From contig OY282371.1 in the NCBI GenBank assembly GCA_958295715.1, positions 772,133 through 836,132 of the forward strand: a stretch of DNA of 64,000 bases, read 5' to 3'. Positions 17,802-64,000 of this stretch are shown in pieces (the first letter of the stretch is position 1; each line of letters begins with the position of its first letter). The translations under genes and the position numbers were made by a program. The notes beneath the pieces were generated by a model. That model saw nothing but the letters and a program-made list of their open reading frames with translations, made no database searches and had not been told where the DNA came from. This DNA comes from an uncultured Dehalococcoidia bacterium (lineage in GTDB: Bacteria > Chloroflexota > Dehalococcoidia > Lucifugimonadales > GCA-2712585).

Positions 17802-18969
17802 ATGCGAATCCGATTCACCAAAGAGCAGCAGGAGTTCCGGCAAGAGGTCTCCGCCTTCCTGGAGGCTGAAACGCCCCCCGAGCGCCGCACTATATACGGC
17901 GAGTTCTCCGAGGAGAAGTACTGGTTTGGCCGCGCCCTCGCCCGGAAGCTGGCCGGCAAGGGGTGGCTCACCGTCGGGTGGCCCAAGGAGTACGGCGGCG
18001 GCGGCAAGACCTTCATAGAGCAGTCCATCCTGGACGAGCAGATAGGCTATCACCGCGTCCAACGGGTCGGCCTAACCGGTCTGAACTTCGCCGGGCCGGC
18101 CATTATGAAGTTCGGCTCCGAGGAGCAGAAGAGCCGGTTCCTTCCCCCCATCGCCCGGGGCGAGGTGGAGTACTGCCAGGGATTCACGGAGCCCAACGCC
18201 GGCTCCGACCTGGCCTCCCTGGAGATGCAGGCCAGGCGGGATGGCGACTCCTACGTCCTCAACGGCTCCAAGATGTTCACCAGCTACTACGCCCACGCCG
18301 ACTACATATACCTGCTGGCCAGGACCGACCCCCACGCCCCCAAGCACCGGGGCATTAGCCTTTTCATAGTTGAGATGAGCGCCCCGGGCGTGTCCACGCG
18401 CCCCCTTCCCTACATCAACGGGGAGGTTGCGGCCCAGACCTTCTTCGACGACGTGCGCGCGCCTGCGTCCGCTCTGGTGGGGGAGGAGAACCGCGGCTGG
18501 TATCACGCCATGACTACTTTGGACTACGAACGCGCCGGCCTTGAGCGGTACGCCCGCGTGCGCCGCGCCTTCGACGACTTCGTGGACTTCTGCCGCGGCT
18601 CCCACTACGACGGAAAGCCGCTCAGCCATGACCCCGTGGTACGGCGCAAACTCGCCATCCTCAAGGTGGGGTATGGAGGCTTGGGCCTTGCTCTGTTGGA
18701 AGGTGGCGTGGATGCAGAGCCGCGGCCAGGTTCCCAACGCGGAGGCGTCCATAGCCTTTCTCTACGGCACACAGCAGAGGTTGAGATTCGCCCAAGAGGC
18801 CATGGAGATACTCGGCCCACTGGGGACCCTCACCCACCCGTCCGAGCTTGCCCCCCTCCAGGGAGCCATCGAAGGTCTCAGCAGGGAGAGCCTGCACCTG
18901 CACGGCGCGGGCACCATGGAGATACACCGCAACATCATCGCCCAGCGGGGCTTGGGACTCCCCCGGTAG
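17802..18969 (+). CDS. Acyl-CoA dehydrogenase, frameshifted near the 3' end
   Basis: FAD-dependent acyl-CoA dehydrogenase of about 388 aa. The N-terminal and middle domains are intact (RFTKEQQEFRQEVSAFLEAE; QGFTEPNAGSDLASLEMQAR, the flavin/substrate strand region; GDSYVLNGSKMFTSY). After LAILKVG (about 18669) the starting frame degenerates, and the next frame continues MEAWALLCWKVAWMQSRGQ, QQRLRFAQEAMEILGPLG and HGAGTMEIHRNIIAQRGLG to the stop at 18969. One extra base at about 18670 explains this. It is followed after 6 bases by a second, different dehydrogenase. Such pairs form heteromeric enzymes in steroid side-chain degradation (FadE26/27 type); applying that model here is inference. Confidence 0.88.
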
Positions 18970-18975
18970 CCGCCT

Positions 18976-20094
18976 ATGGACTTCGCCTTCACCCAAGCCC
19001 AGGAGATGCTGAGACGCTCGGCCCGTGACTTCCTGGAATCCAACTGCCCCACCGCCGTGGTCCGGGAGCTGGAGGCGAAGGGCGTTCCCTACTCCGCCGA
19101 CCTGTGGCGCCGCGTGGCGGACATGGGCTGGCTCGGCGTCGCCCTCCCGGAGGAGCACGGCGGCTCCGGGGACATCATGGACCAGATGGTCCTTGCCGAG
19201 GAGATAGGGCGGGCCCTGCTGCCGTCCCCCCTGCTGACCTCCGCCGTGACCTGCGGCCGTCTGCTGCTGCTCGCGGGGGACCCGTCCCAGCGCGCCGCAT
19301 TGCTGCCTCCCCTGATACGGGGCCAATCCGTTATGAGCCTGGCCCTTGAGGAGCCTGGCGCTCGTTCGCCTCTCAAGCACCCCTCCACCACGGCCCTGCG
19401 CCACGGCGAAGGATACCTAATCAACGGCGTCAAGGCCTTCGTCCCCTACGCGTCGTCGGCGGACGTGTTCATCTGCGCCGTCAGGTCGGAAGACCCTCAA
19501 GGGATTACCCTGGCCCTCGTTGAGTCCAACAGCCCGGGGGTTGCCGTCACGCCGGTGAAGTCCATCGCCAACTTTCCCCAAGCCCTCGTCAAGTTCGACA
19601 ACGTGGCGGTGGGTGAGGAGAAGGTCCTCGGTGGGGCCGGAAAGGGCCGCGCTCCCCTGGTCGAGGCCCTGGAGTGGGCAACCATCGTCCAGTGCGGCGA
19701 GATGGTGGGACGCGGGCAGAAGATTCTTGAGATGGTGGTGGACTACTCCAAGTCCCGCGTCCAGTTTGGCCGTCCCATAGGCGCCTTCCAGGCCATCCAA
19801 CACCAGTGCGCGGACCTGCAAGTGGCTGTGGACGCGGCGCGGCTGTTGACCTATAGGGCCGCCTCGAATCTGAGGGACGGCCTGCCTTCCTCCCAAGAGA
19901 TAGCCATGGCCAAGGCGGCCGCCAACGAGATGAGCCGCCTCTCAACGGTGGCCGGCCACGGGATATACGCCGGCGTTTCTTACACCCTTGAGCACGACAT
20001 GCGGCTTTACAGCGCCCGCAACATGTTGGCCGAGGCCGGCATGGGAGCCGCCGCCCGTCACGTGGACGCCATCGCCGGGATGATGGGCCTCTAG
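18976..20094 (+). CDS. Acyl-CoA dehydrogenase, second of a pair
   Basis: A 372-aa acyl-CoA dehydrogenase with N-terminal helical domain (MDFAFTQAQEMLRRSARDF), LGVALPEEHGGSG, a short beta domain (GYLINGVKAFVPYASSADVF), and the C-terminal helical domain with RVQFGRPIGAFQAIQHQCAD. It lies 6 bases after the preceding dehydrogenase and 21 before a CoA transferase. The sequence is clearly diverged from its partner, not a recent duplicate. In heteromeric acyl-CoA dehydrogenases one subunit carries the catalytic base; which does so here cannot be decided by eye. The operon suggests beta-oxidation of an unusual or cyclic acyl-CoA (inference). Confidence 0.9.
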   Translation: MDFAFTQAQEMLRRSARDFLESNCPTAVVRELEAKGVPYSADLWRRVADMGWLGVALPEEHGGSGDIMDQMVLAEEIGRALLPSPLLTSAVTCGRLLLLAGDPSQRAALLPPLIRGQSVMSLALEEPGARSPLKHPSTTALRHGEGYLINGVKAFVPYASSADVFICAVRSEDPQGITLALVESNSPGVAVTPVKSIANFPQALVKFDNVAVGEEKVLGGAGKGRAPLVEALEWATIVQCGEMVGRGQKILEMVVDYSKSRVQFGRPIGAFQAIQHQCADLQVAVDAARLLTYRAASNLRDGLPSSQEIAMAKAAANEMSRLSTVAGHGIYAGVSYTLEHDMRLYSARNMLAEAGMGAAARHVDAIAGMMGL

Positions 20095-33812: not shown

Positions 33813-36362
33813 CTAAGAGCGGGGGGTGTAGGCGTGGACCAGGTTAGCCGTTGTTGTGTGGAACTCCTCCTCGTTGAAGACCAGGCGAAAGGTCCCCTTG
33901 GCGGGGCCGTCCCGGACGGTCATGGTCCCGCAGTTGAAGGCCTTTTCCAGGGTGTCCAGCACGCTGCGCTTGTAATCGGTGTCGTCGTTGCCGCGTAGGT
34001 GCTCGCCCTTGGTCTCAAAGACCAAGACGTGGGGCTTTCCGTTGGTCTCGCCGGCCATGGCCACGAAATCGGGCCAGATGCGTTCCTGCTTCCACCCGCG
34101 CAGGTAGTACTCACCGCGCTGCCGCACGGCTACCCGGTGCCACCAGCTTAGGGCCTTTTGCTCGTCGAGGTAGCGGGCGAACTTGCGCTCCAGATCCGAG
34201 TCGAACTGCCCCGTATAGATGGGTTCGAACAGGCTGATTTGAATGGGTTCGTGGCCGTTTCTGCGGGCCAGCAGCCCCGAGTGCTGGGAGGCGGGCATTT
34301 CGTACCGTTCGACCATGCGGAAGCTGGGGCGGCCCGTTTCCAGGTCGAACCGTATCAGGCCCTCTTGCAGCTTGCGGCGGAAGACCAGTTCCGCCTGCTT
34401 CTCCACCTCGGCGGCCACGTGTTTCCGCAGCTCGTGGGCGAGGTAGGAGCGGTTGTCGTAGATGTCGTCGCCGGTATGGCCGCCCTTTCGCAGCCCGGCC
34501 AGCAACTCTTGGGCCATGCGCGCGGCCTGCCAGGGGTTGGGCACAAGGTCGGAAAGGCGGCGGGCGTGCCAGCCGATGCTCACCGACTTGTCGACTATCA
34601 ACTCGCGGTCGGGGTGGAAGGTGGGGGCGTCGCCGCCCACGTCAACGATGGCCGATTGCCAGGCGGGTCTGTTCCAGCCGGTGAGAACGCTTTGGGAATC
34701 CGGGGCCTTTATGGCGTCCCAGTCTATGGCGGCCTGGATGTGCCGGTGGTAGTCCAACTCCACCCACTCATTGCCCTTGGCGTGGAGCACCAGGGGCAGG
34801 AAGATGTCCTTGCCTTGGAACTGCTTGCGCCGGTGGGCGGTGACGCGCTGGAGGTCGCCGGAGGCCGCCGTGACCATGTCGCCGAGGCCCGTAAGCCCCT
34901 CGCGCTCCAGGCCGTTCTTGACCTGCTGGACAGCCGTTCCCACGTCGGCGCTGGAGCAGTAGACGTAGCACTGGTCCAGGGCCTCCCGCTTGGAGCGGCG
35001 GGCGTAGGGCTGCCTTAAGACGCGCCCCACCAGCTGGGTGATGGCCCGCTGGGCCTTGGTGTTGTCCAGCATGACCAGCATATAGGCGAAGGGGCAGTCC
35101 CACCCCTCCATGAGGGCCGACTTGGTGATAACCCACCGCACCGGCGAGAGCTCCGACAGCAGGTCGGCGCCGCCCAGTTCGTCCAGTTCCGATGACTTGA
35201 CGGCCACGGCTCCGGCGGGAACGCCCAGGTCCTGGACCAGGCATTCCCGCACGTCCTCGGCGTGGACCCGCTCGCCGTCGCGCTGGTCTTTGCCGGTTCG
35301 CTCCACCCTCACCACGGCCAGGGGTCGGATGTAGCGGTTCTCGCTGTGCTGGAGGGACTGGGCCTCTGCGTCCAGCCCCTCCAACTGGTCGTAGGCCTGG
35401 GCGAGGGTGTGGCGCCAGTCGTTGTTGGTGAAGGAGTTCACCTGCACCGGCAACTTTATCATCTCCTCCTGCTTCAACTCCACGCCGGTGACGTCCACCA
35501 GCAGGTTGCTGACGCCGCGGTTGGGGGTGGCGGAAAGCTCGATGACCAGGCTGGGGTCCAGGCGGTTGACGGAGCGGACGAACTCCTGGTTGGCCTCCCC
35601 CTTGGCGGCGCCGTAGGCCTTGTGGGCCTCGTCGAGGATCACCACGGGCCGCAGCGTCTTGAATACGTTGAAGAGGCTGTGCTTGACAGGCCCGTTCTCG
35701 CCGGCGCGCTCCAGGTCGGGATGCCGTTCCAAGAGCCGTCCGTCGGAGAGGGCGTCGTCGCTGTCCGGGAACAGCGTAGGATACCGCCCGGAGTCGCGGA
35801 ACATGCGCAGGAACTCCCGTCCCTTCTGCCGGTTGGCGGCGGGCAGCATCAGCAGCATGACGCACAGGTAGCTGACGACGTCGTCCCTCGTGAAGGGGTC
35901 GTCCTTTTCCAAGAGCTTCACCCTGCCGCCGCTGGCCCGCTCCAGCATCTGCCGGTAGGGGGACTCCCGGTTCTTCAGGGCGATCATGGTCTGCTGGTAT
36001 ATGGCCTTGGTTGGGGTTATCCACAGGGTCAAGCCCGTCTGCCGGCCCAGGCGCTCCAGGGCGGCGGCGGCCAACAGCGTCTTCCCGCCGCCGGTGGGAA
36101 CCTTGAAGCAGACGTGGGGGATGGGCCGCCCGGCGTCATCGGCGCGGCTCACGTACTCCCCGGCGGTCTTGGCCGCGCCGCCGGCTCCGGTCAGCTGCCG
36201 CCAGGCCGTCCTGGGGTAGTTGCGAGTCTCGCTAGGGACGTCGAGACCCTCCTTTTCGAGGATGGCGATGGTCTTCTCCGACTGGGCTTGGGCCTCCTTC
36301 AGGGCGTCCAGCCACCGGCCAAAGGAGTCGAGGGCGGCGGACTGGTACTGCTTCAGTTCCAC
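33813..36362 (-). CDS. Type III-like restriction enzyme, Res (helicase-nuclease) subunit 1
   Basis: An 849-aa protein with a superfamily 2 helicase core: KVPTGGGKTLLAAAALERL (Walker A, residues about 86-104), LDEAHKAYG (Walker B), LSATPN (motif III), GWDCPFAYMLVMLDNTKAQR, and QLVGRVLRQPYARR (motif VI). The C-terminal nuclease has the PD-(D/E)xK layout: WPDFVAMAG followed by HVLVFETKGEH. It forms the restriction half of a type III system with the methyltransferase encoded immediately upstream (10-base gap). Type III Res needs Mod for DNA recognition, so if Mod 1 is off, restriction is off too. GC content is like the surrounding genome, unlike the Mod recognition block. Confidence 0.9.
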   Translation of the reverse strand: MELKQYQSAALDSFGRWLDALKEAQAQSEKTIAILEKEGLDVPSETRNYPRTAWRQLTGAGGAAKTAGEYVSRADDAGRPIPHVCFKVPTGGGKTLLAAAALERLGRQTGLTLWITPTKAIYQQTMIALKNRESPYRQMLERASGGRVKLLEKDDPFTRDDVVSYLCVMLLMLPAANRQKGREFLRMFRDSGRYPTLFPDSDDALSDGRLLERHPDLERAGENGPVKHSLFNVFKTLRPVVILDEAHKAYGAAKGEANQEFVRSVNRLDPSLVIELSATPNRGVSNLLVDVTGVELKQEEMIKLPVQVNSFTNNDWRHTLAQAYDQLEGLDAEAQSLQHSENRYIRPLAVVRVERTGKDQRDGERVHAEDVRECLVQDLGVPAGAVAVKSSELDELGGADLLSELSPVRWVITKSALMEGWDCPFAYMLVMLDNTKAQRAITQLVGRVLRQPYARRSKREALDQCYVYCSSADVGTAVQQVKNGLEREGLTGLGDMVTAASGDLQRVTAHRRKQFQGKDIFLPLVLHAKGNEWVELDYHRHIQAAIDWDAIKAPDSQSVLTGWNRPAWQSAIVDVGGDAPTFHPDRELIVDKSVSIGWHARRLSDLVPNPWQAARMAQELLAGLRKGGHTGDDIYDNRSYLAHELRKHVAAEVEKQAELVFRRKLQEGLIRFDLETGRPSFRMVERYEMPASQHSGLLARRNGHEPIQISLFEPIYTGQFDSDLERKFARYLDEQKALSWWHRVAVRQRGEYYLRGWKQERIWPDFVAMAGETNGKPHVLVFETKGEHLRGNDDTDYKRSVLDTLEKAFNCGTMTVRDGPAKGTFRLVFNEEEFHTTTANLVHAYTPRS

Positions 36363-36372
36363 CCGTGGCCGC

Positions 36373-38026
36373 CTACTGGCCGGCCCGGTGCATTTCGTAG
36401 GGCAGTTGGCAGAAGACTATGCCCATGCCGGAAAGCTGCCGCTGGCCGATATACTTGCCTGGCCCGAAGACAACGGCCTTCCTGCCCCTCTTTTTGGCGG
36501 CGGCGGAAATGCGCTTGGCCCGCTCCTCGTTGAGCATGGCGTCGGGGCTGGAGAGCCAGCCGGCGCGGGGCTCGTAGAGGAGGTGGTAGTCGACGTTGGC
36601 GCTGCTGTAGAAGAGGCCGTCCCGGCCCCGGCGTTCCAGGGCCTCGGCCCCGGCGGAGACGCCGGAGGCGGTGTGGAGCAGGTGGGCGGCGAGGGTGGAG
36701 AAGGTGGGAAGGGCCTCGCCGTTGAGCATCCCGTCCACCTGAATGGGTTGGCCCAACTCGCAGTAGGTGAAGGAGCCGCCCAGCCCCTCCTTGAGGGCCG
36801 GGTCGCGGGCGGCGGGGACGCCCCGGATGACGCGGCGGACCCGCTCGGCGGTGATGGCGTCGGCGTACTCCTCGCACTCGACTAGGATGAATCGGCGGCT
36901 GCCGCCGTCGGCCTTGTTGAGGGCCAGGACGGCGTGGGCGGTTGTCCCGGAACCCGCGAAGGAGTCTAGGACGAGGGCGTCTTTGTCAGTGGCCATTCTG
37001 AGCAAATGTGCAATTAGCTCAACAGGTTTCGGAGTTTCAAACCCAATGTCATTTAGAATCCTAATTAGTGACTTGTTTGCACTGTCACTACTCCCGCAAC
37101 TCTCAGGAAGTAGAGAAGGATTCGCCGATCTAGTGTCTTTATCTTCAAAGTCATAAATTTTGAGCTTTACTACCCCGTTATCACTGACGAACCGATTCCT
37201 TTGCTCTAATTTCCTTGCGGTATTCTGTCCAATTTGCCATCTACGGCCTTCACGAGGGTAATGTCCAAGTATCTGAAATTGCATAGTCCCACGTGCATAT
37301 GACCCGATATTCTTTTTCTCTATAATCGTAGTTCTATAACATCCCTCTGCGTCGCTATTTGGATACTTGCGCGTTTCTTTCCGAGTTACACGCTGGTTAA
37401 GAGACGCAGAAGCTGATTTTCTGTAGCAGATTTGATAGTCGGTCACAGAACTAACATCTGCCCCCCTAACATTAGTAGAGGTGCCCTTTTTCCTCCAATG
37501 AAACGCTGAGAGAAAATTCTCCTCGCCAAACACCTCGTCCATGAGCATACGGAGGTGATGCTGCTCGTTGTCGTCAATGGATACGAAGATAACGCCGTCG
37601 TCGGACAGCAGTTCGCGGAGGAGTTGGAGGCGGGGCCACATCATGCAGAGCCACTTGTCGTGGCGCTCCAGGTCCTCCCCGTCCACGGGGCCGTTCTCCT
37701 TCAGCCACGCCTTCATCAGGGGGCTGTTCACCCGGTCGTTGTACGCCCACCCCTCGTTGCCCGTGTTGTAGGGCGGGTCAATGTACACGCAGTTGACGCG
37801 GCCGGCGTAGCGGGGCAGCAGGGCCTTGAGGGCGTGGAGGTTGTCGCCGTGGATTATTAGGTTGTCGTCGGGGGAGCCGGCCGTTGGGGTTTGCGAATCG
37901 TTAGAACTCTTGTTCGGGGGGGGGGGGGCGAACGGACTTAGAAGCGTCGGGAACTAGGGGGCGGTATGGCACGCTGAGGTGGTGGGCGTATACGTGGTGC
38001 TTGCCTTTCCAGTCGAGGGTGGGCAT
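36373..38026 (-). CDS. Type III-like DNA methyltransferase (Mod) 1, split by a G13 tract
   Basis: A beta-class adenine methyltransferase: DPPYNTGNEGW (catalytic motif IV) precedes FAGSGTTAHAV (SAM motif I). An ATG at 37788 opens at MYIDPPYN, but homology extends upstream (NLIIHGDNLHALKALLPRYA) without a start codon. The genuine N-terminus begins at the ATG at 38026, MPTLDWKGKHHVYAHHLSVP, typical of this family, with AGGA 8 bases upstream. The frames are separated by 13 G (37916-37928). With 13, translation from 38026 ends at TAA after 41 residues; with 12 or 15 the protein is one 550- or 551-aa enzyme. The middle (about 36985-37515) is AT-rich and is the probable target-recognition domain. 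Confidence 0.87.
37916..37928. repeat. Homopolymeric G13 tract inside the Mod 1 coding region
   Basis: Thirteen consecutive G on the plus strand (C13 in the sense of the gene), at codons 33-37 of the methyltransferase. It is the longest homopolymer I see in the window and the exact point where the N-terminal and catalytic frames diverge. Confidence 0.9.
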
Positions 38027-54070: not shown

Positions 54071-54100
54071 TACTAATACATTTTATTTAGTAGAGACTAA
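54071..54100. promoter_or_regulatory. Overlapping inverted repeats upstream of imelysin B (candidate metal-regulator operator)
   Basis: TACTAA at 54071-54076 pairs with TTAGTA at 54087-54092, and TTAGT at 54087-54091 pairs with ACTAA at 54096-54100 (TTAGTAGAGACTAA). The stretch is strikingly AT-rich, about 95 bases upstream of the imelysin start on the minus strand, where a promoter must lie. The regulator is unknown. Confidence 0.4.
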
Positions 54101-54192
54101 TTCGGTTGACACGGTACACTAACAGAGTCTGCGCGTCTGTCCACCCGCCCTCCAGCATCACGGCGGGACCACACCGTCATGGCTATAGCCCG

Positions 54193-54595
54193 CGCGCGGT
54201 GGCGCGGTTGCCTGTCGCGGTGGAGGCAAGGGAGATGGATTCCCGCCTGCGCGGGAATGACGAGAGGGGGTGCGGGAATTCGGAAGCCCCCAACGCTCTT
54301 CAAAACTAAGTGGGCGCACGCGCCCTTCCCGCCTGCGCGGGAATGACGAGATGGGGGTGCGGGAATTCGGAAGCCCCCAACGCTCTTCAAAACTAAGTGG
54401 GCGCACGCGCCCTTCCCGCCTGCGCGGGAATGACGAGATGGGGGTGCGGGAATTCGGAAGCCCCCAACGCTCTTCAAAACTAAGTGGGCGCACGCGCCCT
54501 TCCCGCCTGCGCGGGAATGACGGGCGGGGTGGCGCGGTTGCCTGTCGCGGTGGAGGCAAGAGGGATGGATTCCCGCCTGCGCGGGAATGACGAGA
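54193..54595. repeat. Array of three 87-bp tandem repeats with flanking direct repeats
   Basis: Hairpin starts (TCCCGCCTGCGCGGG) at 54241, 54327, 54414 and 54501 give units of 86, 87 and 87 bases. Each unit holds the hairpin, GGTGCGGGAATTCGGAAGC, CCCCAACGCTCTTCAAAAC and TAAGTGGGCGCACGCGCCC. The array is flanked by a 69-bp direct repeat (54193-54261 and 54527-54595, from GGTGGCGCGGTTGCCTGTCG to the hairpin). No unique spacers, so it is not a CRISPR. The gap of about 660 bases from 53978 to 54635 contains nothing else recognisable. Confidence 0.9.
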
Positions 54596-54635
54596 GGGAT
54601 GCGGCGGCGGCGGCGGCGGCGTTCGTCCATCCATC

Positions 54636-55181
54636 CTACTTGTAGTAGACGGCGATGTAGGCGTGGAAGAGGCCGAGAATTATGGTCAGGGCCGCGAGGA
54701 GCACGTGCATCACGACCCAGAAGGCTGTGTAGGCCCGGTTGTGAATCCTGATTCCCACCGGGCTGGCGACCCCCACGATGACGTTGGTCAGGAGAACCCA
54801 ACTCAGCACGGCCAGGTAGCCGTAGCCTATCTGCACGCTGTGGAGGTAGAAGAGGACGGGGGCGACAACGCCGCTGCGCTGGTGCAGGGCCATTAGACGG
54901 TGAACCCTCATGCCCCGCTGCCGCGCCAGAAAGAGGCACCACTGCCAGCAGACGTAGGCCAGCAGGCAGGAGCCGGTGACGTACTTGTACAGGTCGACGG
55001 TCTGGAGTTGGGCCAGCCACTCCCAGCGCAGCCCGGCGGCGTCTTGGACAAGGTAGGCCAGCAGCAGAAGGACCCCTGCCAGCCGCCACCGCCATTCCGA
55101 CAGCCGCGACGAGGTTATCCTCTTGACGGGGAACCGCAGCCTGAAGCCGGCGGGTCTCTCGGCGCGCCCGGCCGCGCTCAC
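54636..55181 (-). CDS. Small membrane protein with histidine ligands (b-type cytochrome candidate)
   Basis: A 181-aa membrane protein with about four helices after a basic 30-residue tail: RLAGVLLLLAYLVQDAAG, KYVTGSCLLAYVCWQWCLFL, SGVVAPVLFYLHSVQIGYG, YLAVLSWVLLTNVIVGVAS and WVVMHVLLAALTIILGLFH. Histidines in MALHQR, FYLHS, MHVLL and GLFHAY are positioned in or near helices as in cytochrome b561/ferric-reductase-like domains, so it may bind heme. It starts with a GTG in a GTGA overlap with the upstream gene. A role as a quinol-facing partner of the two c-type cytochromes is inference. Confidence 0.72.
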   Translation of the reverse strand: MSAAGRAERPAGFRLRFPVKRITSSRLSEWRWRLAGVLLLLAYLVQDAAGLRWEWLAQLQTVDLYKYVTGSCLLAYVCWQWCLFLARQRGMRVHRLMALHQRSGVVAPVLFYLHSVQIGYGYLAVLSWVLLTNVIVGVASPVGIRIHNRAYTAFWVVMHVLLAALTIILGLFHAYIAVYYK

Positions 55182-57109: not shown

Positions 57110-57958
57110 ATGCCCCTTAGAACAGCGATATTCGTTGACGGAGCAAATTTTCGAGGCAATCTCCGTAACTTCTCATTTGCATCAGTGTCGCCTCCCAGCG
57201 GGCGCAGGTACAGGCTAGAAGAACGACACTTCGATTGGAAGCGATTCTTTGACGGAGTGCTTGCGAAGTTCAAGCAGGCGACCGGTTGGGAGCATCAACT
57301 GCTCCGCATTCACTGGTATTATGCTGAGAGCATATCCCCCTGGATCTCATCAGATACTATGAGGCTCCGTCTGGCGCGACGAGTGGTGGACAGGCATCCT
57401 GAGATAAACGGGCTTACACCCCAGAAGGTAATCGACATGGCTCATAGCTGGTACACGCATGAGCGAGATTACTTCGAGCGGTTGAGAGAAGATATCTTCG
57501 AGAATATCCAAAGACAAACGGATTTCCTGGAATTCCGGTACGTGGGTCAATACCAGGTTAACCCATTCCGTGTCCATCGTATCGAACAGAACGAGAATGG
57601 AGAGATTATCTATAAGGGTGTTCAGATAGGTGAAAAAGGGGTGGATACAGGCATCGCCGTGGACATGATTGCTAAGATGCCCCACTACGATGTTGCTATC
57701 CTCGTCAGCGGGGACGCTGATTTCCTTCCAGTGGTCGGATACCTAAAGGACCACCTTAAGTACGTCTATCAGTTCTCCGTGGCGCAGGGAGTCCCTCCTT
57801 CAATCCGATACCTCTCCCCATATCTCAAAGGAAAAGTCGATTGCTTTGCATCATTCGACGAGGCGGAGCTTTTGAGTCAGTATCTGATAAGGCACAGTGG
57901 GATTCCACCGGCTATACTTGCCGCTATTGACGCCAGAATCCTGAAGCTTTCGGCATAG
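57110..57958 (+). CDS. NYN-domain (LabA/DUF88-like) PIN-fold protein
   Basis: A 282-aa protein with the NYN fold of putative metal-dependent RNases: AIFVDGANFRGNLRNFS (first Asp and Asn), EKGVDTGIAVDMIAKMP (second acidic cluster) and VAILVSGDADFLPVVGYL (third). All three acidic positions of the PIN/NYN active site are present. AGGAAG lies upstream. Composition is near 50% GC, well below neighbours, indicating transfer. It converges on the second type III-like R-M pair with an 80-base gap, and NYN proteins occur in defence and toxin-like contexts (established), so it may be an accessory RNase; this is inference. Confidence 0.88.
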   Translation: MPLRTAIFVDGANFRGNLRNFSFASVSPPSGRRYRLEERHFDWKRFFDGVLAKFKQATGWEHQLLRIHWYYAESISPWISSDTMRLRLARRVVDRHPEINGLTPQKVIDMAHSWYTHERDYFERLREDIFENIQRQTDFLEFRYVGQYQVNPFRVHRIEQNENGEIIYKGVQIGEKGVDTGIAVDMIAKMPHYDVAILVSGDADFLPVVGYLKDHLKYVYQFSVAQGVPPSIRYLSPYLKGKVDCFASFDEAELLSQYLIRHSGIPPAILAAIDARILKLSA

Positions 57959-58038
57959 GATTCGAGTGGCCTGATACTCGGCTACCGTTAGGCGGTGCGC
58001 CGTTGGGAGGAAGTGTAGGTTTATTGTGGGAGCGCGCG

Positions 58039-60861
58039 TCACCGGGGCTTGCCGACCCGAGCCCCCTCGTGCTTCCCTAGTATGTCTTTCACGTCCGAAG
58101 GGTTGTAGGAAACGGCGGATGACCAGCGCCCGAAGCCTCCGTGCTGGTTGACGGCCTCGGCCCACTGTTCCAAGGCGCGACGCTTGGCGTGGCTTTCTTG
58201 GTCCGGTTGCCCCTTCGTCTCCAGAACCAGCATGTCCCCTGACTTCAGACGGATTATGAAGTCGGGGCGATATTTCCGCACCACGCCCCGGTACACGTAG
58301 AGGATCTCAAAGCCCAGGTGGTCGTTCTTCACCCAGGCGTCGACCAAGGGGCTACGGTCTAGTTGGAAGGCCTCCGAAGCTTCCCACGTGCTATCGTATA
58401 CACACATGTTGACGTGGCTGCGGGCGGTGAAGTGGCACGGTTTGCCCGTGTGCCAGGTCGCCATGTTGGCGGTGGAGCGTATCGGGTGGTCCCGGTCGAA
58501 CACGGGCTCAAGACGCTCTGTGTTCTCGACGCGTATGGATTCCCATAGGTGCTGAACAACCTTCGTCATGTTGAGGGTGATGATGAGCCGCCGAGGGGGG
58601 CCTTCCTGATAGAACATGGGCGGCGTTACGCTAAGCCTGTTTGACATAAGAAAATGCTCGACGAGCTTCACCAACTGGGCGATGAGCGACTCCCGGCTCC
58701 CCGACCAGGACGTTTCCATCTGGTCGTAGACGTCCCGCGCCGTCTCAAAGATGATCTTCTGAGTCCGGTACTCTTTGGCGAGGGCCTCCAGGTCGATTTT
58801 ACTCAACTTGGTCACGTCCGGCTTGCCGTCCACTATGGGGGCGAGTTCGGCCAACTGCGGTGTTTTGCCGGCGTCGAGTTCTAGACCCTCCACCCGTTCC
58901 CAGTCGAGAGAGAGGCGGGGCCTGTAGACGTGTTCAACGCGTATGACGTTGGGCCACCTGATTTCGAAGTCGGCCTTTTTCGCCACCGGCTCAATGGCGG
59001 TCTTAGGCGTTGGCGGTCTCGGCGCCACGCCGTCGCCGGACTCGTGGGGCAGGAAGGTGAACGGCACGCCGAATATGTTGACGTACTCAGGTTCGAACAT
59101 GCCGGTCTTCGCATTCACTTCGTAGGAGGTGCGACGAAGGCCCCGCCCCACCACCTGCTCGCACAGCAATTGACTGGTGAACGCCCGGAGTCCCATGATG
59201 TGCGTCACCGTCTTGGCGTCCCAGCCCTCTGACAGCATCCCTACGGAGATGACGTTCTGTATCCCCTCGCCGGGCTGTCCCGGCTGGCCTACGGTGTCCA
59301 CCATCCGCCTGAGCCGCTCGGCCCGCTGGTCTGCCGTGAGCTTCGGGCCGGACGCCTCTTTGGGAGGAACCCCCTTGTCCCGCGGCGCGACCTCTGCTAT
59401 GGGTTCCTCGGACTCCTCGGCGCGTTTCAGGGCTCCCGAGTCGATATGCAGGGTCCGTTCGGCGTCGCAGAGCTCTTCGATGCGGATTTGCCTGCGGTCG
59501 AAGGCCCGTTTGACGCGAGCCGCCGTTTCGGTGCGGTTAGCGACGGTTATCATAACCGGTGGAGCGCTTAATCCGCAGTTCTTCCACTTTCTCGCGGTCT
59601 CCCGCCAGTCGTAGCCCAGCAGGTAGTAACCGTTGGTCACCAGGTCCGGAAGCGGCGCGGTGGGCGGCGCGCGGCGATTCAGGTCGTCCTTCACCTCCGG
59701 GTCGTTGTATATGTGGTACAGGCGCGACTTATACGTCTTAACGTCGGGCGCCGCGTCATCGCGGACCACCACCCGCGGCGTCTTCACCAGGCCCGACTCT
59801 ATGGCGTCGTTCAGTCCAAAATCGCTCACAATCCAGTTGAACAGGGCCTCATCCGAGCTTTTCTTGCCCGACGGGGCGAAGGGCGTGGCCGAGAAGTCGT
59901 AGCAGGTGAGGATGCCCCGTGTCTGGTGGATCCTGTCCAGGCCGCCCAGCCACTTGGTCGCTTCCTCAATGTCGGCCTTGGCGACGCCCCTCACCTTGGA
60001 TTCGGCTGGAACGCGCCAAGCGTGGTGCGCCTCGTCGTTGATGACCAGCAGGTTCCGGCAGCCGGCCATATCGTCGCCCAACGCTTGGCGGACATAGGCT
60101 TCGTCGCTCTTGACCCCGCGCTTGTCCACGCTACGCTTCCTCGAAATCTGTTCCTCCGTCTCCCAGTTGAGGGCGTGCCAGTTGCGGACAAGCGCCTTCC
60201 CGCTGCGGAGCCTGTCCATCATGGGTGAAGGGACTATGTTGAAGGCCTTGTAGTAGTTTTGGGGATGGGACGGTTCGAGGACGGCGAGGCGGCTCTTGAC
60301 CGTGAGGCCGGGGGCTATGACCAGCGCGTTCTTGGCGAAGCGGGTGTCCTGGGGATTGGCGACCTTGTTCAGGATTTGCCAGGCGATAACCATGGCCATG
60401 ACCACGGTCTTGCCCGTGCCCGTGGCCATCTTGGCGCACAGACGCCGGAACTGCCCGCCGTCACCCGGCACGTCTATCCCCACCCTCTCGCTATCGTGGG
60501 CTTCGGTCAGCCAAATCAGCGTCTCGGCGGCCTCGAGTTGGCAGAAGAAGAACCGGCGGTTCTCGAACTCCTCCGGGTCGTTCCAGTGTTCCAGCAGGCG
60601 CTTGGTAATTGCGGTCACGCCGGGGTAGCTGGCCTCCCGCCACGCCTTCACCCGCGGCCGGATCCGGTTGACCAGAGGGATTTCGACGAAGACGCCCGGG
60701 TCGTCAAAGGTCTTGGAATCCCCCGACGCTATGAGGTAGCCCGCGGGCCGACGGCCGGCCGCGCGCGAGAAGGTCCGCCTCTCCCGGCTGTAGCTCCAGT
60801 GCTCGGCAGGCTCCTCGTAGGGCCTGTTGATGATGAGCCGGTCAATTGATGACTGTTCCAT
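58039..60861 (-). CDS. Type III-like restriction enzyme, Res (helicase-nuclease) subunit 2
   Basis: A 940-aa protein. A novel-looking N-terminal 130 residues precede the SF2 helicase core: AKMATGTGKTVVMAMVIAWQ (Walker A near residue 145), NLLVINDEAHHAWRVP, CYDFSATPFAPSG, ISVGMLSEGWDAKTVTHIMG and LCEQVVGRGLRRTSYE (motif VI). The C-terminal nuclease reads YRPDFIIRLKSGDMLVLETKG, a PD-(D/E)xK pattern. It is distinct from Res 1 in its long middle region and resembles the BPTD_3080-type restriction helicases. It lies 70 bases downstream of Mod 2 and should restrict DNA not modified by it. Confidence 0.9.
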   Translation of the reverse strand: MEQSSIDRLIINRPYEEPAEHWSYSRERRTFSRAAGRRPAGYLIASGDSKTFDDPGVFVEIPLVNRIRPRVKAWREASYPGVTAITKRLLEHWNDPEEFENRRFFFCQLEAAETLIWLTEAHDSERVGIDVPGDGGQFRRLCAKMATGTGKTVVMAMVIAWQILNKVANPQDTRFAKNALVIAPGLTVKSRLAVLEPSHPQNYYKAFNIVPSPMMDRLRSGKALVRNWHALNWETEEQISRKRSVDKRGVKSDEAYVRQALGDDMAGCRNLLVINDEAHHAWRVPAESKVRGVAKADIEEATKWLGGLDRIHQTRGILTCYDFSATPFAPSGKKSSDEALFNWIVSDFGLNDAIESGLVKTPRVVVRDDAAPDVKTYKSRLYHIYNDPEVKDDLNRRAPPTAPLPDLVTNGYYLLGYDWRETARKWKNCGLSAPPVMITVANRTETAARVKRAFDRRQIRIEELCDAERTLHIDSGALKRAEESEEPIAEVAPRDKGVPPKEASGPKLTADQRAERLRRMVDTVGQPGQPGEGIQNVISVGMLSEGWDAKTVTHIMGLRAFTSQLLCEQVVGRGLRRTSYEVNAKTGMFEPEYVNIFGVPFTFLPHESGDGVAPRPPTPKTAIEPVAKKADFEIRWPNVIRVEHVYRPRLSLDWERVEGLELDAGKTPQLAELAPIVDGKPDVTKLSKIDLEALAKEYRTQKIIFETARDVYDQMETSWSGSRESLIAQLVKLVEHFLMSNRLSVTPPMFYQEGPPRRLIITLNMTKVVQHLWESIRVENTERLEPVFDRDHPIRSTANMATWHTGKPCHFTARSHVNMCVYDSTWEASEAFQLDRSPLVDAWVKNDHLGFEILYVYRGVVRKYRPDFIIRLKSGDMLVLETKGQPDQESHAKRRALEQWAEAVNQHGGFGRWSSAVSYNPSDVKDILGKHEGARVGKPR

Positions 60862-60931
60862 TGTCCGGCCTATTGGTCGCCCTCCCGCGTAATCGCAATC
60901 AGGCGCGCAGTATCGACGAAGGCTTTGCTCA

Positions 60932-63697
60932 CTAGCGACGGTCCGCTCCTGAAGTATAGTGGTCCAGATTATCTATCAGGTCGTCGGGCAAGTTGGCCCA
61001 TTCCTCTTGGGGCACCCTGCTGGCATGTTTTGCGAGTATCTCTTCCACTGTGGGCCGCTTCTGGCCCTTGGCGGCTTCCAACCCTATAACCTTCAGGCTC
61101 TCGATGCCCCGGTCGTCCACTATCTTCACCGCGACGCGGCGATGCTCGCCGGGCTCGAAGGGCAGGGAGGTGGTTCCCCTATACGCTTCGATAAGCTCCT
61201 CGTCAATCTCCGCCCTTAGGTTGCGCGCCAGACGCGCCCACCCGTCTTTGGAGCCGGCCATGGGGAAGAACACCTGCCGCGGGTACAGGCTGCGGCCGTC
61301 GTAGTCCGTATCCAGCATCCACATGGCTATCCTGTCCCGGCCGCCCGACTCCACCCCGCCGCTCTTGGTGTTGTAGTAGTCGAACCCCTGAACGGATACC
61401 CGCGCTTTGCCTGAGTCGGGCCCGTCGACAATCGTCTCCACCTCCACGTCAGGCTGCCCAATTAGCCAAAAACTCTCGTTGCTGGCCCGCTTGCGCTTCA
61501 GGTCCCCGGTGAGCAGGTCGGCGTTCATCTGCGCCTTGAGCAGGCTAATGCCCGGCCAGTTGGTCTCGTCAATGTCCTTGGCCGCCTCGGGGTCGAACTG
61601 AAAGGCCGCAAAGACTATCACTCGCGGCCTTGGCATCAGGGTCTGGGCTTCCTGAAGGGCTAGGTTCACCTGCTGCTGCTCCAAGGGGGCGTGTTCCGGC
61701 CCGAAGGACACGACAACGCGTTGGGATGCCCGGGCCGCGCCCTCGCCAATAGACTCGGCGCCGTCTTTGTTGGGAAGGGACTCGCCGTCGGCGTGGAGAT
61801 AGGGATAGTGTGGTAGCGGCTCCAGGCGGGCGAAGCGGATGAACTGCCCCGCCTTGCCCCGGATGCCGGTTCTCAACAGTTCGTCCCGCCAGTCCGACTG
61901 GCGCAGCGTTTCGCCGGAGCGGGACACCGTGTCATCGGCGAGGGCCGGCTCCGCGTCTTCAACGTCGTCAATGGGCTTCACCGCCGGGGCGGGGACGGCC
62001 TCAACGCTGAAGGGGCCGGTGACCCGCTTCTTGCCCGTGTCCACCAGTGGCTGGTCGTACAGCGTCTCCCGGGGCGCGTGGCGGGCTATGGCCGCGTCTA
62101 TCTCGGCCTGGGTCATGCCCTCCCGGATGTCGGGGTTGTTGGCGATGGAGCCCAGGGTGACGTGGGGCACAGTTTTGTAGTTGAAGCCGCTGCCCACGCC
62201 CTCATCCGGCTGGGCCAACTCGTAATAGTCGAATAGGGCGGTCATCAGGCGCTGCTTGGCGAGAGACACGGCCACGCGGGAGGTGTCGCAGGTAATCCAG
62301 CGCCGGCCCCACTGCTCGGCGACGTAGGCCGTGGAGCCGGAGCCGCAGGTGGGGTCGAACACCAGGTCGCCGGGGTCGGTGGTCATCAGGATGCAGCGCT
62401 CGATGATTTCGGTCGAACTCTGGACTACATACACCTTCGGGTCTGACCTGCTTTGTACGGCTCCACTGATATCGTTCCACAGATTGCCAATTGCCGCAAT
62501 CGGGAAGTCTGACTTGAACCTCCGGTAGTTTAATGTGTCTCCTGCCGTGTCGTGCAACCGTCCTGCGTTAGCCAACCGCATTAAGCCGACGAGATTGGTC
62601 TTGAAGGTGCCTCTGCCCGGGATGTATTTGCGACCGCGAAATTCGAACTCCCTTACGTCGCCATCCCCGGCAGGACGTGAACTCGTCAGATTGTCGACAC
62701 GGAATACCTTCGCATGATTGGTTTGCTTGTCGTCCAGTGTTTTGGTCGGAACAAAAGAACCGTCCGCGAGCAATGCTTGATCATATCGTTCATCTGCTGT
62801 ATCACTGCGAGAAATGAAGATCTGTCGGTACTTGGCGACATTCCGGTCACGGGCATACCAAATTATGAAATCCGTCGTTGTACCTAGAAGTACAGCAGTG
62901 CCTTGGCTAGTTGTTTTCCGGATGGAAATTATGGAGACAAAATTACGCTGACCAAACACCTCGTCCATCAACTCACGAACGTGATGCACATTCTCATCGC
63001 TAATCTGCACAAAGCAGGAGCCGCTCTCGGTCAGCAACTCCCGGGCCAGCATCAGGCGGTCGCGTAGGTAGCTCAGGTATGAGTGGATGCCCAACTCCCA
63101 GGTGTCGCGGAAGGCCTTGATGGTCTCCGGCTCCTGGGTCAGGTCCTCGTCCCGGCCGTCCCGCACGTCGCGCCGGTTGACGAAGGGCTGGAAGTTGGAG
63201 CCGTAGCGGATGCCGTAGGGCGGGTCCATGTACACCATCTGCGTCTTCCCCGCCATGCCCTCCTTCTCCAGCAGGCTGTTCATCACCAGCAGACTGTCGC
63301 CGGCCACCAGGCGGTTGGTCCAGTTGAGGCGGTGCCGGTAGAACTTGATGGCGCTGCGGATGGGCGGGTTCTCCTCGGGCAGTTCGAACAGGCTGGGTTG
63401 CTGGATGGCGCCGTTGCCGTTGCGCTTCCGGGCGGCCTCAATGATGGCGCGCGGGTCTATGCGCTCGTGAACGTGGAGCGACACGGTGGGGACCTCGAAG
63501 GAGCCGCGCTCCGTCTTCCCCGCCCATTGCAACTGCGGGTCCAGGTGGGGGTCGTAGGCGTAAGTCTTCCGGCCCGCGTCGGGGTCGGTCTCAGACGTGA
63601 CCAGGCCCACCGGCGGGTTGTTCAGCCTATCCTTATCCCGGTGGTCATAAGACCTGATGGGTCGCTTGGCTCCCTTAGTCCTTCTTCTTGGCGGCAT
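60932..63697 (-). CDS. Type III-like DNA methyltransferase (Mod) 2
   Basis: A 921-aa beta-class N6-adenine methyltransferase: VYMDPPYGIRYGSNFQPF (catalytic motif IV near residue 157) precedes VFDPTCGSGSTAYVAEQWG (SAM motif I near 445). Between them, bases about 62400-62985 are AT-rich, unlike the flanks, and encode the probable target-recognition domain. The C-terminal 400 residues (QVNLALQEAQTLMPRPRVIV and beyond) are an extra domain found in the larger Mod proteins of this type. The ATG at 63697 has GGGAGG 6 bases upstream. No homopolymer of more than 8 is visible, so this system looks constitutively readable, in contrast to Mod 1. Confidence 0.9.
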   Translation of the reverse strand: MPPRRRTKGAKRPIRSYDHRDKDRLNNPPVGLVTSETDPDAGRKTYAYDPHLDPQLQWAGKTERGSFEVPTVSLHVHERIDPRAIIEAARKRNGNGAIQQPSLFELPEENPPIRSAIKFYRHRLNWTNRLVAGDSLLVMNSLLEKEGMAGKTQMVYMDPPYGIRYGSNFQPFVNRRDVRDGRDEDLTQEPETIKAFRDTWELGIHSYLSYLRDRLMLARELLTESGSCFVQISDENVHHVRELMDEVFGQRNFVSIISIRKTTSQGTAVLLGTTTDFIIWYARDRNVAKYRQIFISRSDTADERYDQALLADGSFVPTKTLDDKQTNHAKVFRVDNLTSSRPAGDGDVREFEFRGRKYIPGRGTFKTNLVGLMRLANAGRLHDTAGDTLNYRRFKSDFPIAAIGNLWNDISGAVQSRSDPKVYVVQSSTEIIERCILMTTDPGDLVFDPTCGSGSTAYVAEQWGRRWITCDTSRVAVSLAKQRLMTALFDYYELAQPDEGVGSGFNYKTVPHVTLGSIANNPDIREGMTQAEIDAAIARHAPRETLYDQPLVDTGKKRVTGPFSVEAVPAPAVKPIDDVEDAEPALADDTVSRSGETLRQSDWRDELLRTGIRGKAGQFIRFARLEPLPHYPYLHADGESLPNKDGAESIGEGAARASQRVVVSFGPEHAPLEQQQVNLALQEAQTLMPRPRVIVFAAFQFDPEAAKDIDETNWPGISLLKAQMNADLLTGDLKRKRASNESFWLIGQPDVEVETIVDGPDSGKARVSVQGFDYYNTKSGGVESGGRDRIAMWMLDTDYDGRSLYPRQVFFPMAGSKDGWARLARNLRAEIDEELIEAYRGTTSLPFEPGEHRRVAVKIVDDRGIESLKVIGLEAAKGQKRPTVEEILAKHASRVPQEEWANLPDDLIDNLDHYTSGADRR

Positions 63698-63747
63698 AGC
63701 AACCTCCCAAAGCCTATTCTACCACCCGCCGCCAACCCTCGGAATAC

Positions 63748-63781
63748 GCCGGCAGGAGGGAGGCATGGATTCATGCCGGCG
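63748..63781. repeat. Hairpin element at the right border of the R-M island
   Basis: Nested inverted repeats: CGCCGGCA (63748-63755) with TGCCGGCG (63774-63781), enclosing GGCATG/CATGCC (63762-63777). Its GGATTCATGCC core matches 56928-56938 at the other side of the NYN/R-M island. Confidence 0.65.
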
Positions 63782-63787
63782 CCGGGG

Positions 63788-64000
63788 TTAGTACTGGGGT
63801 TTGCGGTAGAATTTGAGGTAGAAGAAGGCGCCGCCGGCTGCGATGGCCATGGCCGCGAGGACTCCGCCGATGACCAGCCACAGTGAGCCGCCCACGACTC
63901 CGTCGTCTTCAGGCTGGACGGGTGGCGTTGGCGTCACGGGCGCCGGGGTCTCGGCGGGGGTCGGGGCCGGCGTTGCGGTCGGCTCCGGCGTTAGGGCCGC
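63788..64000 (-). CDS. C-terminal end of a Pro/Thr-rich membrane-anchored surface protein (partial)
   Basis: Only the last 70 codons are in the window: a Thr/Pro/Ala linker (TPEPTATPAPTPAETPAPVT) and then one hydrophobic segment, SLWLVIGGVLAAMAIAAGGA, followed by FFYLKFYRKPQY and the stop at 63788-63790. This is the typical tail of an extracellular protein held by a C-terminal helix with a short positively charged cytoplasmic end. The N-terminal domain, and so the function, lies beyond the right edge. The gene is upstream of Mod 2 on the same strand with a 90-base gap holding a hairpin. Confidence 0.8.
   Translation of the reverse strand, partial: AALTPEPTATPAPTPAETPAPVTPTPPVQPEDDGVVGGSLWLVIGGVLAAMAIAAGGAFFYLKFYRKPQY

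What the first reader, a model, noticed from the sequence alone, without database searches (positions are those of the whole stretch)
62390..62990. Same AT-rich recognition block in the unrelated Mod 2
Seen: GC content in the middle of Mod 2 (for example TTGATCATATCGTTCATCTG) drops relative to both flanks, again between motif IV (DPPYG) and motif I (DPTCGSGST). Two independent R-M systems sharing the pattern argues for a general process of specificity-domain exchange in this genome and against chance.
Basis: partly seen in the sequence, partly recalled or inferred. Interest (0 to 1): 0.6.

Follow-up and report, generated by a model that had tools for sequence, protein, structure and literature searches.

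The report
AT-rich swappable target-recognition block in methyltransferase
The stretch of this DNA-methylating enzyme's gene that decides which DNA sequence it reads looks like a swappable cassette with its own AT-rich composition, and nearly all relatives examined show the same, which raises the question why exchanged gene pieces stay AT-rich.

Summary
In Mod 2 (window 60932-63697, minus strand) third-position GC falls from 0.86 to 0.55 over codons 229-430 (window 62408-63013). It is the second-deepest within-gene dip among 92 long ORFs sampled from this genome; Mod 1 is the deepest. The block is the target-recognition region of a beta-class Type III-like methyltransferase paired with a BPTD_3080-family Res. 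Exchange is supported: the flanks place Mod 2 beside L009/L011, the block beside L095/L008, and the region tree contradicts the flank trees. The 'this genome' part is wrong. The dip occurs in 148 of 151 distinct relatives from bacteria, archaea and viral contigs, 13 of 13 Mod 1-type genes and 19 of 23 Type I HsdS segments, but not in CcrM-like methylases (lower in 11 of 30). It is synonymous, step-edged, independent of site conservation, and present in AT-rich hosts. Exchange within a closed pool cannot give a deficit everywhere, so an AT-rich reservoir or a block-specific AT drift is also needed; I could not decide which. Type III domain exchange, and low GC in one allele (modA12), are already published. 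The breadth of the pattern is the new part.

The parts
60932..63697 (-). Mod 2: beta-class DNA methyltransferase, 921 aa (P0001)
   Evidence: Pfam N6_N4_Mtase 6.7e-31; PADLOC MTase_III 1.1e-157; best fold matches 6k0w and EcoP15I Mod 4zcf, model mean pLDDT 58.8
62408..63013 (-). AT-shifted recognition block, codons 229-430 by GC3 likelihood in this gene; family-wide edges at codons ~251 and ~430 (window 62408-62947)
63212..63226 (-). catalytic motif IV DPPYG (residues 158-162)
   Evidence: translation; motif name recalled
62330..62356 (-). motif I DPTCGSGST (residues 448-456)
   Evidence: translation; invariant columns; motif name recalled
63014..63475 (-). N-side flank (residues 75-228): conserved, GC3 0.95 over residues 75-222
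61088..62407 (-). C-side flank (residues 431-870): conserved, GC3 0.82-0.91 in the two parts measured
58039..60861 (-). Res 2: partner helicase/nuclease, BPTD_3080 family, 940 aa, GC3 0.82, no comparable dip
   Evidence: NCBIfam NF046055 score 1111.8, cut-off 800; Pfam ResIII 3e-8; GC3
36373..37950 (-). Mod 1: second Type III methyltransferase (open frame used, 525 aa)
   Evidence: PADLOC MTase_III 2.3e-144
36982..37518 (-). AT-shifted recognition block of Mod 1, GC3 0.38 inside, 0.89 outside
33813..36362 (-). Res 1: partner of Mod 1, GC3 0.90
   Evidence: PADLOC REase_III 2.8e-186; GC3

Best explanation
The block is the exchangeable target-recognition cassette of a Type III-like methyltransferase. 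Shown: close relatives with nearly identical flanks carry unrelated cassettes, and in one pair the cassette alone has moved. Cassettes of three recognition-protein families are AT-shifted at third codon positions; CcrM-like methylases, taken as fixed in specificity, are not. In a low-confidence model the cassette runs between two core helices (residues 234-248 and 429-439). Inferred: recombination in the DNA coding for the conserved motifs replaces the cassette and so changes the recognition sequence of Mod, and with it that of the bound Res. Also inferred: because a cassette is replaced faster than its composition adjusts, it keeps the AT-rich make-up of the shared accessory pool it circulates in. 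Not settled: whether that pool is AT-rich by origin or because cassettes escape a GC-raising force that acts on the recombining flanks.
For: GC3 lower in the region in 148 of 151 distinct Mod relatives and 125 of 127 region homology groups; below the expectation from own flank codon usage in 80 of 81, and below the flank at fourfold sites in 78 of 81; lower for 18 of 18 amino acids. Step edges at residues ~251 and ~430 in the family mean; conserved sites inside -0.23, variable sites outside -0.05. Nucleotide-identity breaks fall at the same edges. 53 of 61 Mods whose flank-nearest relative is at least 85% identical there share less than 50% of the region with it. L076/L085: flanks 0.99, region 0.46. 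L040/L044: region nucleotide identity 0.96, flanks 0.75. Tree conflict. Mod 1-type 13 of 13; HsdS 19 of 23; CcrM-like control no dip.
Against: Cassette stability does not significantly predict a smaller dip (12 stable against 100 others, p 0.17). Regions shared by L001, L008 and L095 are synonymously saturated yet still AT-shifted. Regression of region on flank GC3 meets the diagonal only at GC3 0.10 (95% -0.06 to 0.21), more AT-rich than the sampled flanks, so no sampled compartment looks like the reservoir. Viral-contig Mods show the dip too (43 of 45). No AT-rich donor of Mod 2's own region was found: plasmids best 43% identity, phages none. Exceptions: L070, L188, L220 and 4 of 23 HsdS segments.
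Confidence: 0.82

Rival explanations
1. Exchange is real, but the AT shift is a local equilibrium: cassettes rarely meet a homologous partner, so they escape GC-biased gene conversion (or another recombination-linked GC-raising force) that acts on the flanks, and drift towards the AT-biased mutational equilibrium.
For: Deficit present even where flank GC3 is below 0.4 (12 of 12); fixed point at GC3 ~0.1; dip kept at saturated synonymous sites; flanks slightly above their own Res (+0.033) and neighbour ORFs (+0.085); no dip in CcrM-like genes, which can recombine along their whole length. Lassalle 2015 (PMC4450053, abstract) reports higher GC in recombining genes.
Against: Hildebrand 2010 (PMC2936529, passages) argues against gene conversion as the GC-raising force. 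Region GC3 still follows host flank GC3 (slope 0.60).
Confidence: 0.3
2. Recent import of the Mod 2 region from one AT-rich donor into this genome.
For: Sharp composition block in a GC-rich genome; flanks closest to L009/L011 but region closest to L095/L008.
Against: Region distance to L095 (0.30) equals the flank distance (0.30) and fourfold sites are saturated; both relatives also carry the dip in GC-rich genes.
Confidence: 0.1
3. No exchange: a fast-evolving, weakly constrained domain loses preferred codons, or AT-ending codons are selected there for translation or folding.
For: The region is the least conserved long stretch of the protein and rare codons are enriched (AGA 0.067 to 0.223 of Arg).
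Against: Conserved sites inside are nearly as AT-shifted as variable ones (-0.23 and -0.26) while variable flank sites are not (-0.05); the shift persists where AT-ending codons are the common ones; trees conflict.
Confidence: 0.04
4. Amino-acid composition or assembly artefact.
For: First codon position also drops (152 of 152 rows), partly reflecting amino-acid change.
Against: Composition-controlled test 80 of 81; the same pattern in unrelated assemblies.
Confidence: 0.01

Closest known systems
modA DNA recognition domains of Neisseria and Haemophilus (Gawthorne 2012, PMC3311624; passages and Table 2 read)
   Same: Type III Mod, conserved flanks, exchanged central domain; modA12 domain 28% GC against 40% on both sides, read there as horizontal transfer
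   Different: Low GC reported there for modA12 only, in the passages read; the present pattern spans phyla and AT-rich hosts and does not fit a simple foreign-origin reading. No phase-variation repeat tract was found in Mod 2
Type III TRD movement and Type I DoMo in Helicobacter pylori (Furuta 2014, PMC3983042, passages; Furuta 2011, PMC3077401, search listing with abstract start only; the 2012 paper on movement between non-orthologous proteins was not held)
   Same: Recognition domains move as units by recombination at conserved-motif DNA, also across species
   Different: No composition rule in the passages read ('GC content' occurs 0 times in PMC3983042)
EcoP15I Mod/Res (PMC4490356, passages; PDB 4zcf)
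   Same: Beta-class order, recognition domain inserted between motifs IV-VIII and X/I-III
   Different: EcoP15I TRD is aa 263-384; the AT block here is longer and includes core strands before it. Res 2 is BPTD_3080 family, with only a weak PADLOC Type III Res match (4e-10)

Membership tests
Type III beta-class methyltransferase (Mod) | N6_N4_Mtase domain with motif IV before motif I and a recognition domain between | tested here: met
Type III beta-class methyltransferase (Mod) | adjacent Res gene with helicase and nuclease parts | tested here: met
   ResIII domain and BPTD_3080 equivalog; classical PADLOC Type III Res model only 4e-10
Type III beta-class methyltransferase (Mod) | methylation of one strand of an asymmetric site | not testable with these tools
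   needs methylome data
Exchangeable recognition domain | conserved flanks, divergent centre with sharp edges | tested here: met
Exchangeable recognition domain | conflicting phylogeny of centre and flanks | tested here: met
   FastTree, 105 taxa including three near-duplicates at most; no AU-type test was run
Exchangeable recognition domain | direct en-bloc transfer | tested here: met
   seen in L040/L044, not for Mod 2 itself
Phasevarion mod gene | simple sequence repeat tract giving on/off switching | tested here: not met
   only three weak arrays of 2-3 copies in 57900-64000
Recent foreign import by low GC | AT shift fades in long-resident regions | tested here: inconclusive
   p 0.17, 12 against 100

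The most novel reading that the evidence does not exclude
Recognition cassettes are a natural experiment on what holds bacterial GC content up. They share gene, promoter, expression and mutation regime with their flanks and differ mainly in having few homologous recombination partners. Their near-universal synonymous AT shift would then mean that the GC-raising force is tied to homologous recombination (biased gene conversion) rather than to selection for GC. The same would be expected of other swapped modules.
Probability: 0.2. Interest if true: 0.78.

Novelty: new member of a known kind. Interest (0 to 1): 0.5.

Why it matters
Low GC in a recognition domain has been read as a sign of foreign origin (PMC3311624). 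If nearly every exchanged domain has it, including those in AT-rich hosts and those that may have long stayed in place, that reading is unsafe. The pattern also offers a simple way to spot exchangeable specificity segments from one genome sequence. And it gives a within-gene contrast for testing why bacterial GC content is higher than mutation alone would make it.

Tried and rejected
Amino-acid composition (rejected). Site conservation or codon preference (rejected). Position in a beta-class fold (rejected by the CcrM-like control). Ordinary gene-to-gene variation (rejected; also Res as control: its lowest 180-codon window, chosen after the fact, averages -0.082 against -0.226 for the region, the region deeper in 69 of 82). 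Viral genomes as a uniform AT-rich donor pool (not supported: viral Mods have a dip too, smaller by 0.088, SE 0.021, at equal flank GC3). Fading with residence time (inconclusive). Tandem, direct or inverted repeats at the block edges (nothing beyond one imperfect 16-nt pair). Literature searches that led nowhere.

Limits: relatives were found by similarity to P0001 or to alignment A1, so the sample is not random. Region bounds 236-436 came from the finding; 251-430 were read off the family mean of the first 81 sequences and then applied to later sets. Rows dropped: L106 and L123 (incomplete), L096, L098, L089 and L209 (near-duplicates), L225 and L226 (too short), and 7 of 49 new viral loci without a long enough ORF. 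In the HsdS set, L135/L145 and L144/L147 look like segments of the same genes, and one of 24 segments lacked the helix part. The dips of the five in-genome methylases (Mod 2, the other four) were judged by eye. The query of the CcrM-like control, L148, matches NCBIfam CcrM over its length (627 bits) but below that model's cut-off of 830; the other 29 loci were found by similarity to it and not scanned; that CcrM has one fixed recognition sequence is recalled.

Full report
What is there. The finding lies in a 921-codon minus-strand gene, window 60932-63697, encoding a methyltransferase with Pfam N6_N4_Mtase and PADLOC MTase_III (1.1e-157). Motif IV (DPPYG) precedes motif I (DPTCGSGST), the beta-class order described for EcoP15I (PMC4490356, passages). 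Downstream lies its partner, a 940-aa BPTD_3080-family restriction enzyme (score 1111.8 against a cut-off of 800). The best fold matches of a low-confidence model (mean pLDDT 58.8) are the Type III Mods 6k0w and EcoP15I.

GC3 is 0.545 in codons 229-430 and 0.858 outside, with a log-likelihood gain of 41.4 against at most 10.5 in 300 shuffles. Mod 1 and Mod 2 have the two deepest within-gene GC3 dips of 92 long ORFs sampled from about 464 kb of this 2.40-Mb genome.

It is not specific to this genome. I collected relatives of Mod 2 from species genomes (80 loci), viral contigs (7 loci; 56, of which 49 were new) and genomes of the same phylum (31 of 301 with a match, the window's own included). 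In the first 81 sequences the region's synonymous GC3 is 0.398 against 0.641 expected from each gene's own flank codon usage, lower in 80 of 81; at fourfold sites 0.409 against 0.670, lower in 78 of 81. After removing duplicates the total is 148 of 151: 105 of 106 cellular and 43 of 45 viral. Grouping by region homology leaves 125 of 127 groups negative. All 18 amino acids with a choice at that position shift.

Shape. The family-mean profile drops at residue ~251 and returns at ~430, flat between at about -0.25. These are the places where nucleotide identity breaks between relatives with similar flanks. Inside, highly conserved sites are shifted (-0.23) nearly as much as variable ones (-0.26); outside, variable sites are hardly shifted (-0.05). 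So the property belongs to a DNA segment, not to relaxed constraint. The crystallographic recognition domain of EcoP15I is narrower (aa 263-384), so the segment also takes in part of the methylase core.

Exchange. For 61 Mods the flank-nearest relative is at least 85% identical in the flanks; in 53 of those the region is under 50% identical. L076/L085 share 0.99 of flank residues and 0.46 of the region; L040/L044 share 0.96 of region nucleotides and 0.75 of flank nucleotides, a recent transfer of the region alone. Trees of 105 sequences: of 23 splits with support of at least 0.9 in the N-flank tree, 16 are in the C-flank tree (3 contradicted) and 5 in the region tree (17 contradicted). Mod 2 is nearest L009 (0.14) and L011 (0.19) by flanks, and L095 (0.30) and L008 (0.41) by region, the next being 1.17 away. 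The direction of the Mod 2 swap is not determined.

Generality and control. Mod 1-type genes: 13 of 13, mean -0.26. Type I HsdS (PF01420 in 19 of 201 genomes): recognition part 0.37, following conserved helix 0.65, lower in 19 of 23 segments (the split of the Pfam model at positions 120 and 140 is my own, from recall). Four further methylases of this genome (Mod 1, L002, L003, L005) show a central dip by eye. CcrM-like methylases, same motif order but taken to have one fixed recognition sequence (recalled), show no dip in 30 alphaproteobacterial genes: 0.767 in the block against 0.738 outside, lower in 11 of 30 (a second choice of block gives 14 of 30). The query of that set matches NCBIfam CcrM at 627 bits, below its cut-off of 830. 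The dip therefore goes with exchangeability.

Why AT-rich. Swapping among a closed set of hosts conserves the average, so it cannot make the region poorer in GC than the flanks in nearly every host. Yet even where flank GC3 is below 0.4 the region is lower (12 of 12, mean -0.07), and the regression meets the diagonal only at GC3 0.10 (95% -0.06 to 0.21). Either an unsampled AT-rich reservoir feeds the pool, or cassettes drift AT-wards because a GC-raising force does not reach them. For the first: turnover is fast (53 of 61). Against it: viral Mods are not uniformly AT-rich, no AT-rich donor of Mod 2's region was found, and three Mods sharing Mod 2's region have saturated synonymous sites and keep the dip. 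For the second: those same facts, plus flanks slightly above their Res (+0.033) and neighbouring ORFs (+0.085). Against it: region GC3 follows the host (slope 0.60), and the role of gene conversion in bacteria is disputed (PMC4450053 abstract for; PMC2936529 passages against). I lean to a pool kept young by turnover but hold this loosely.

What is known. Exchange of Type III recognition domains, and low GC in one of them (modA12: 28% against 40% and 40%), is in print (PMC3311624), as is movement of Type III and Type I domains in Helicobacter (PMC3983042). In ten full-text searches I saw no statement of a family-wide rule; that covers the held open-access library only, mostly as listings.

Noticed in passing
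window 63788-64000 (-), continuing into L257 1-5868: A very long protein of fibronectin type III-like repeats (by eye; open frame of at least 1956 codons) lies directly upstream of Mod 2.
   Followed up: partly
window 57110-57958 (+): NYN-domain gene (Pfam 7e-14) next to Res 2 with GC3 0.57 against about 0.80 for the genome sample; weak PADLOC matches to HEC-09 and a LabA-like NYN nuclease.
   Followed up: partly
window 54097-55095 (-): Gene with GC3 0.54 and a 60-codon minimum of 0.35, the lowest gene GC3 among the 33 window genes listed.
   Followed up: no
window 17802-19028 (+), from codon 316: Local 60-codon GC3 minimum of 0.45 in a gene averaging 0.76.
   Followed up: no
L124-L147: In several HsdS genes the conserved spacers reach GC3 0.85-0.95, above neighbouring ORFs (e.g. 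L125 against 0.53, L131 against 0.67).
   Followed up: no
L035, L037, L056, L064: A group of Mods whose region and flanks diverge together and whose dip is small (-0.01 to -0.14), as expected if long-resident cassettes adjust; too few to test.
   Followed up: partly
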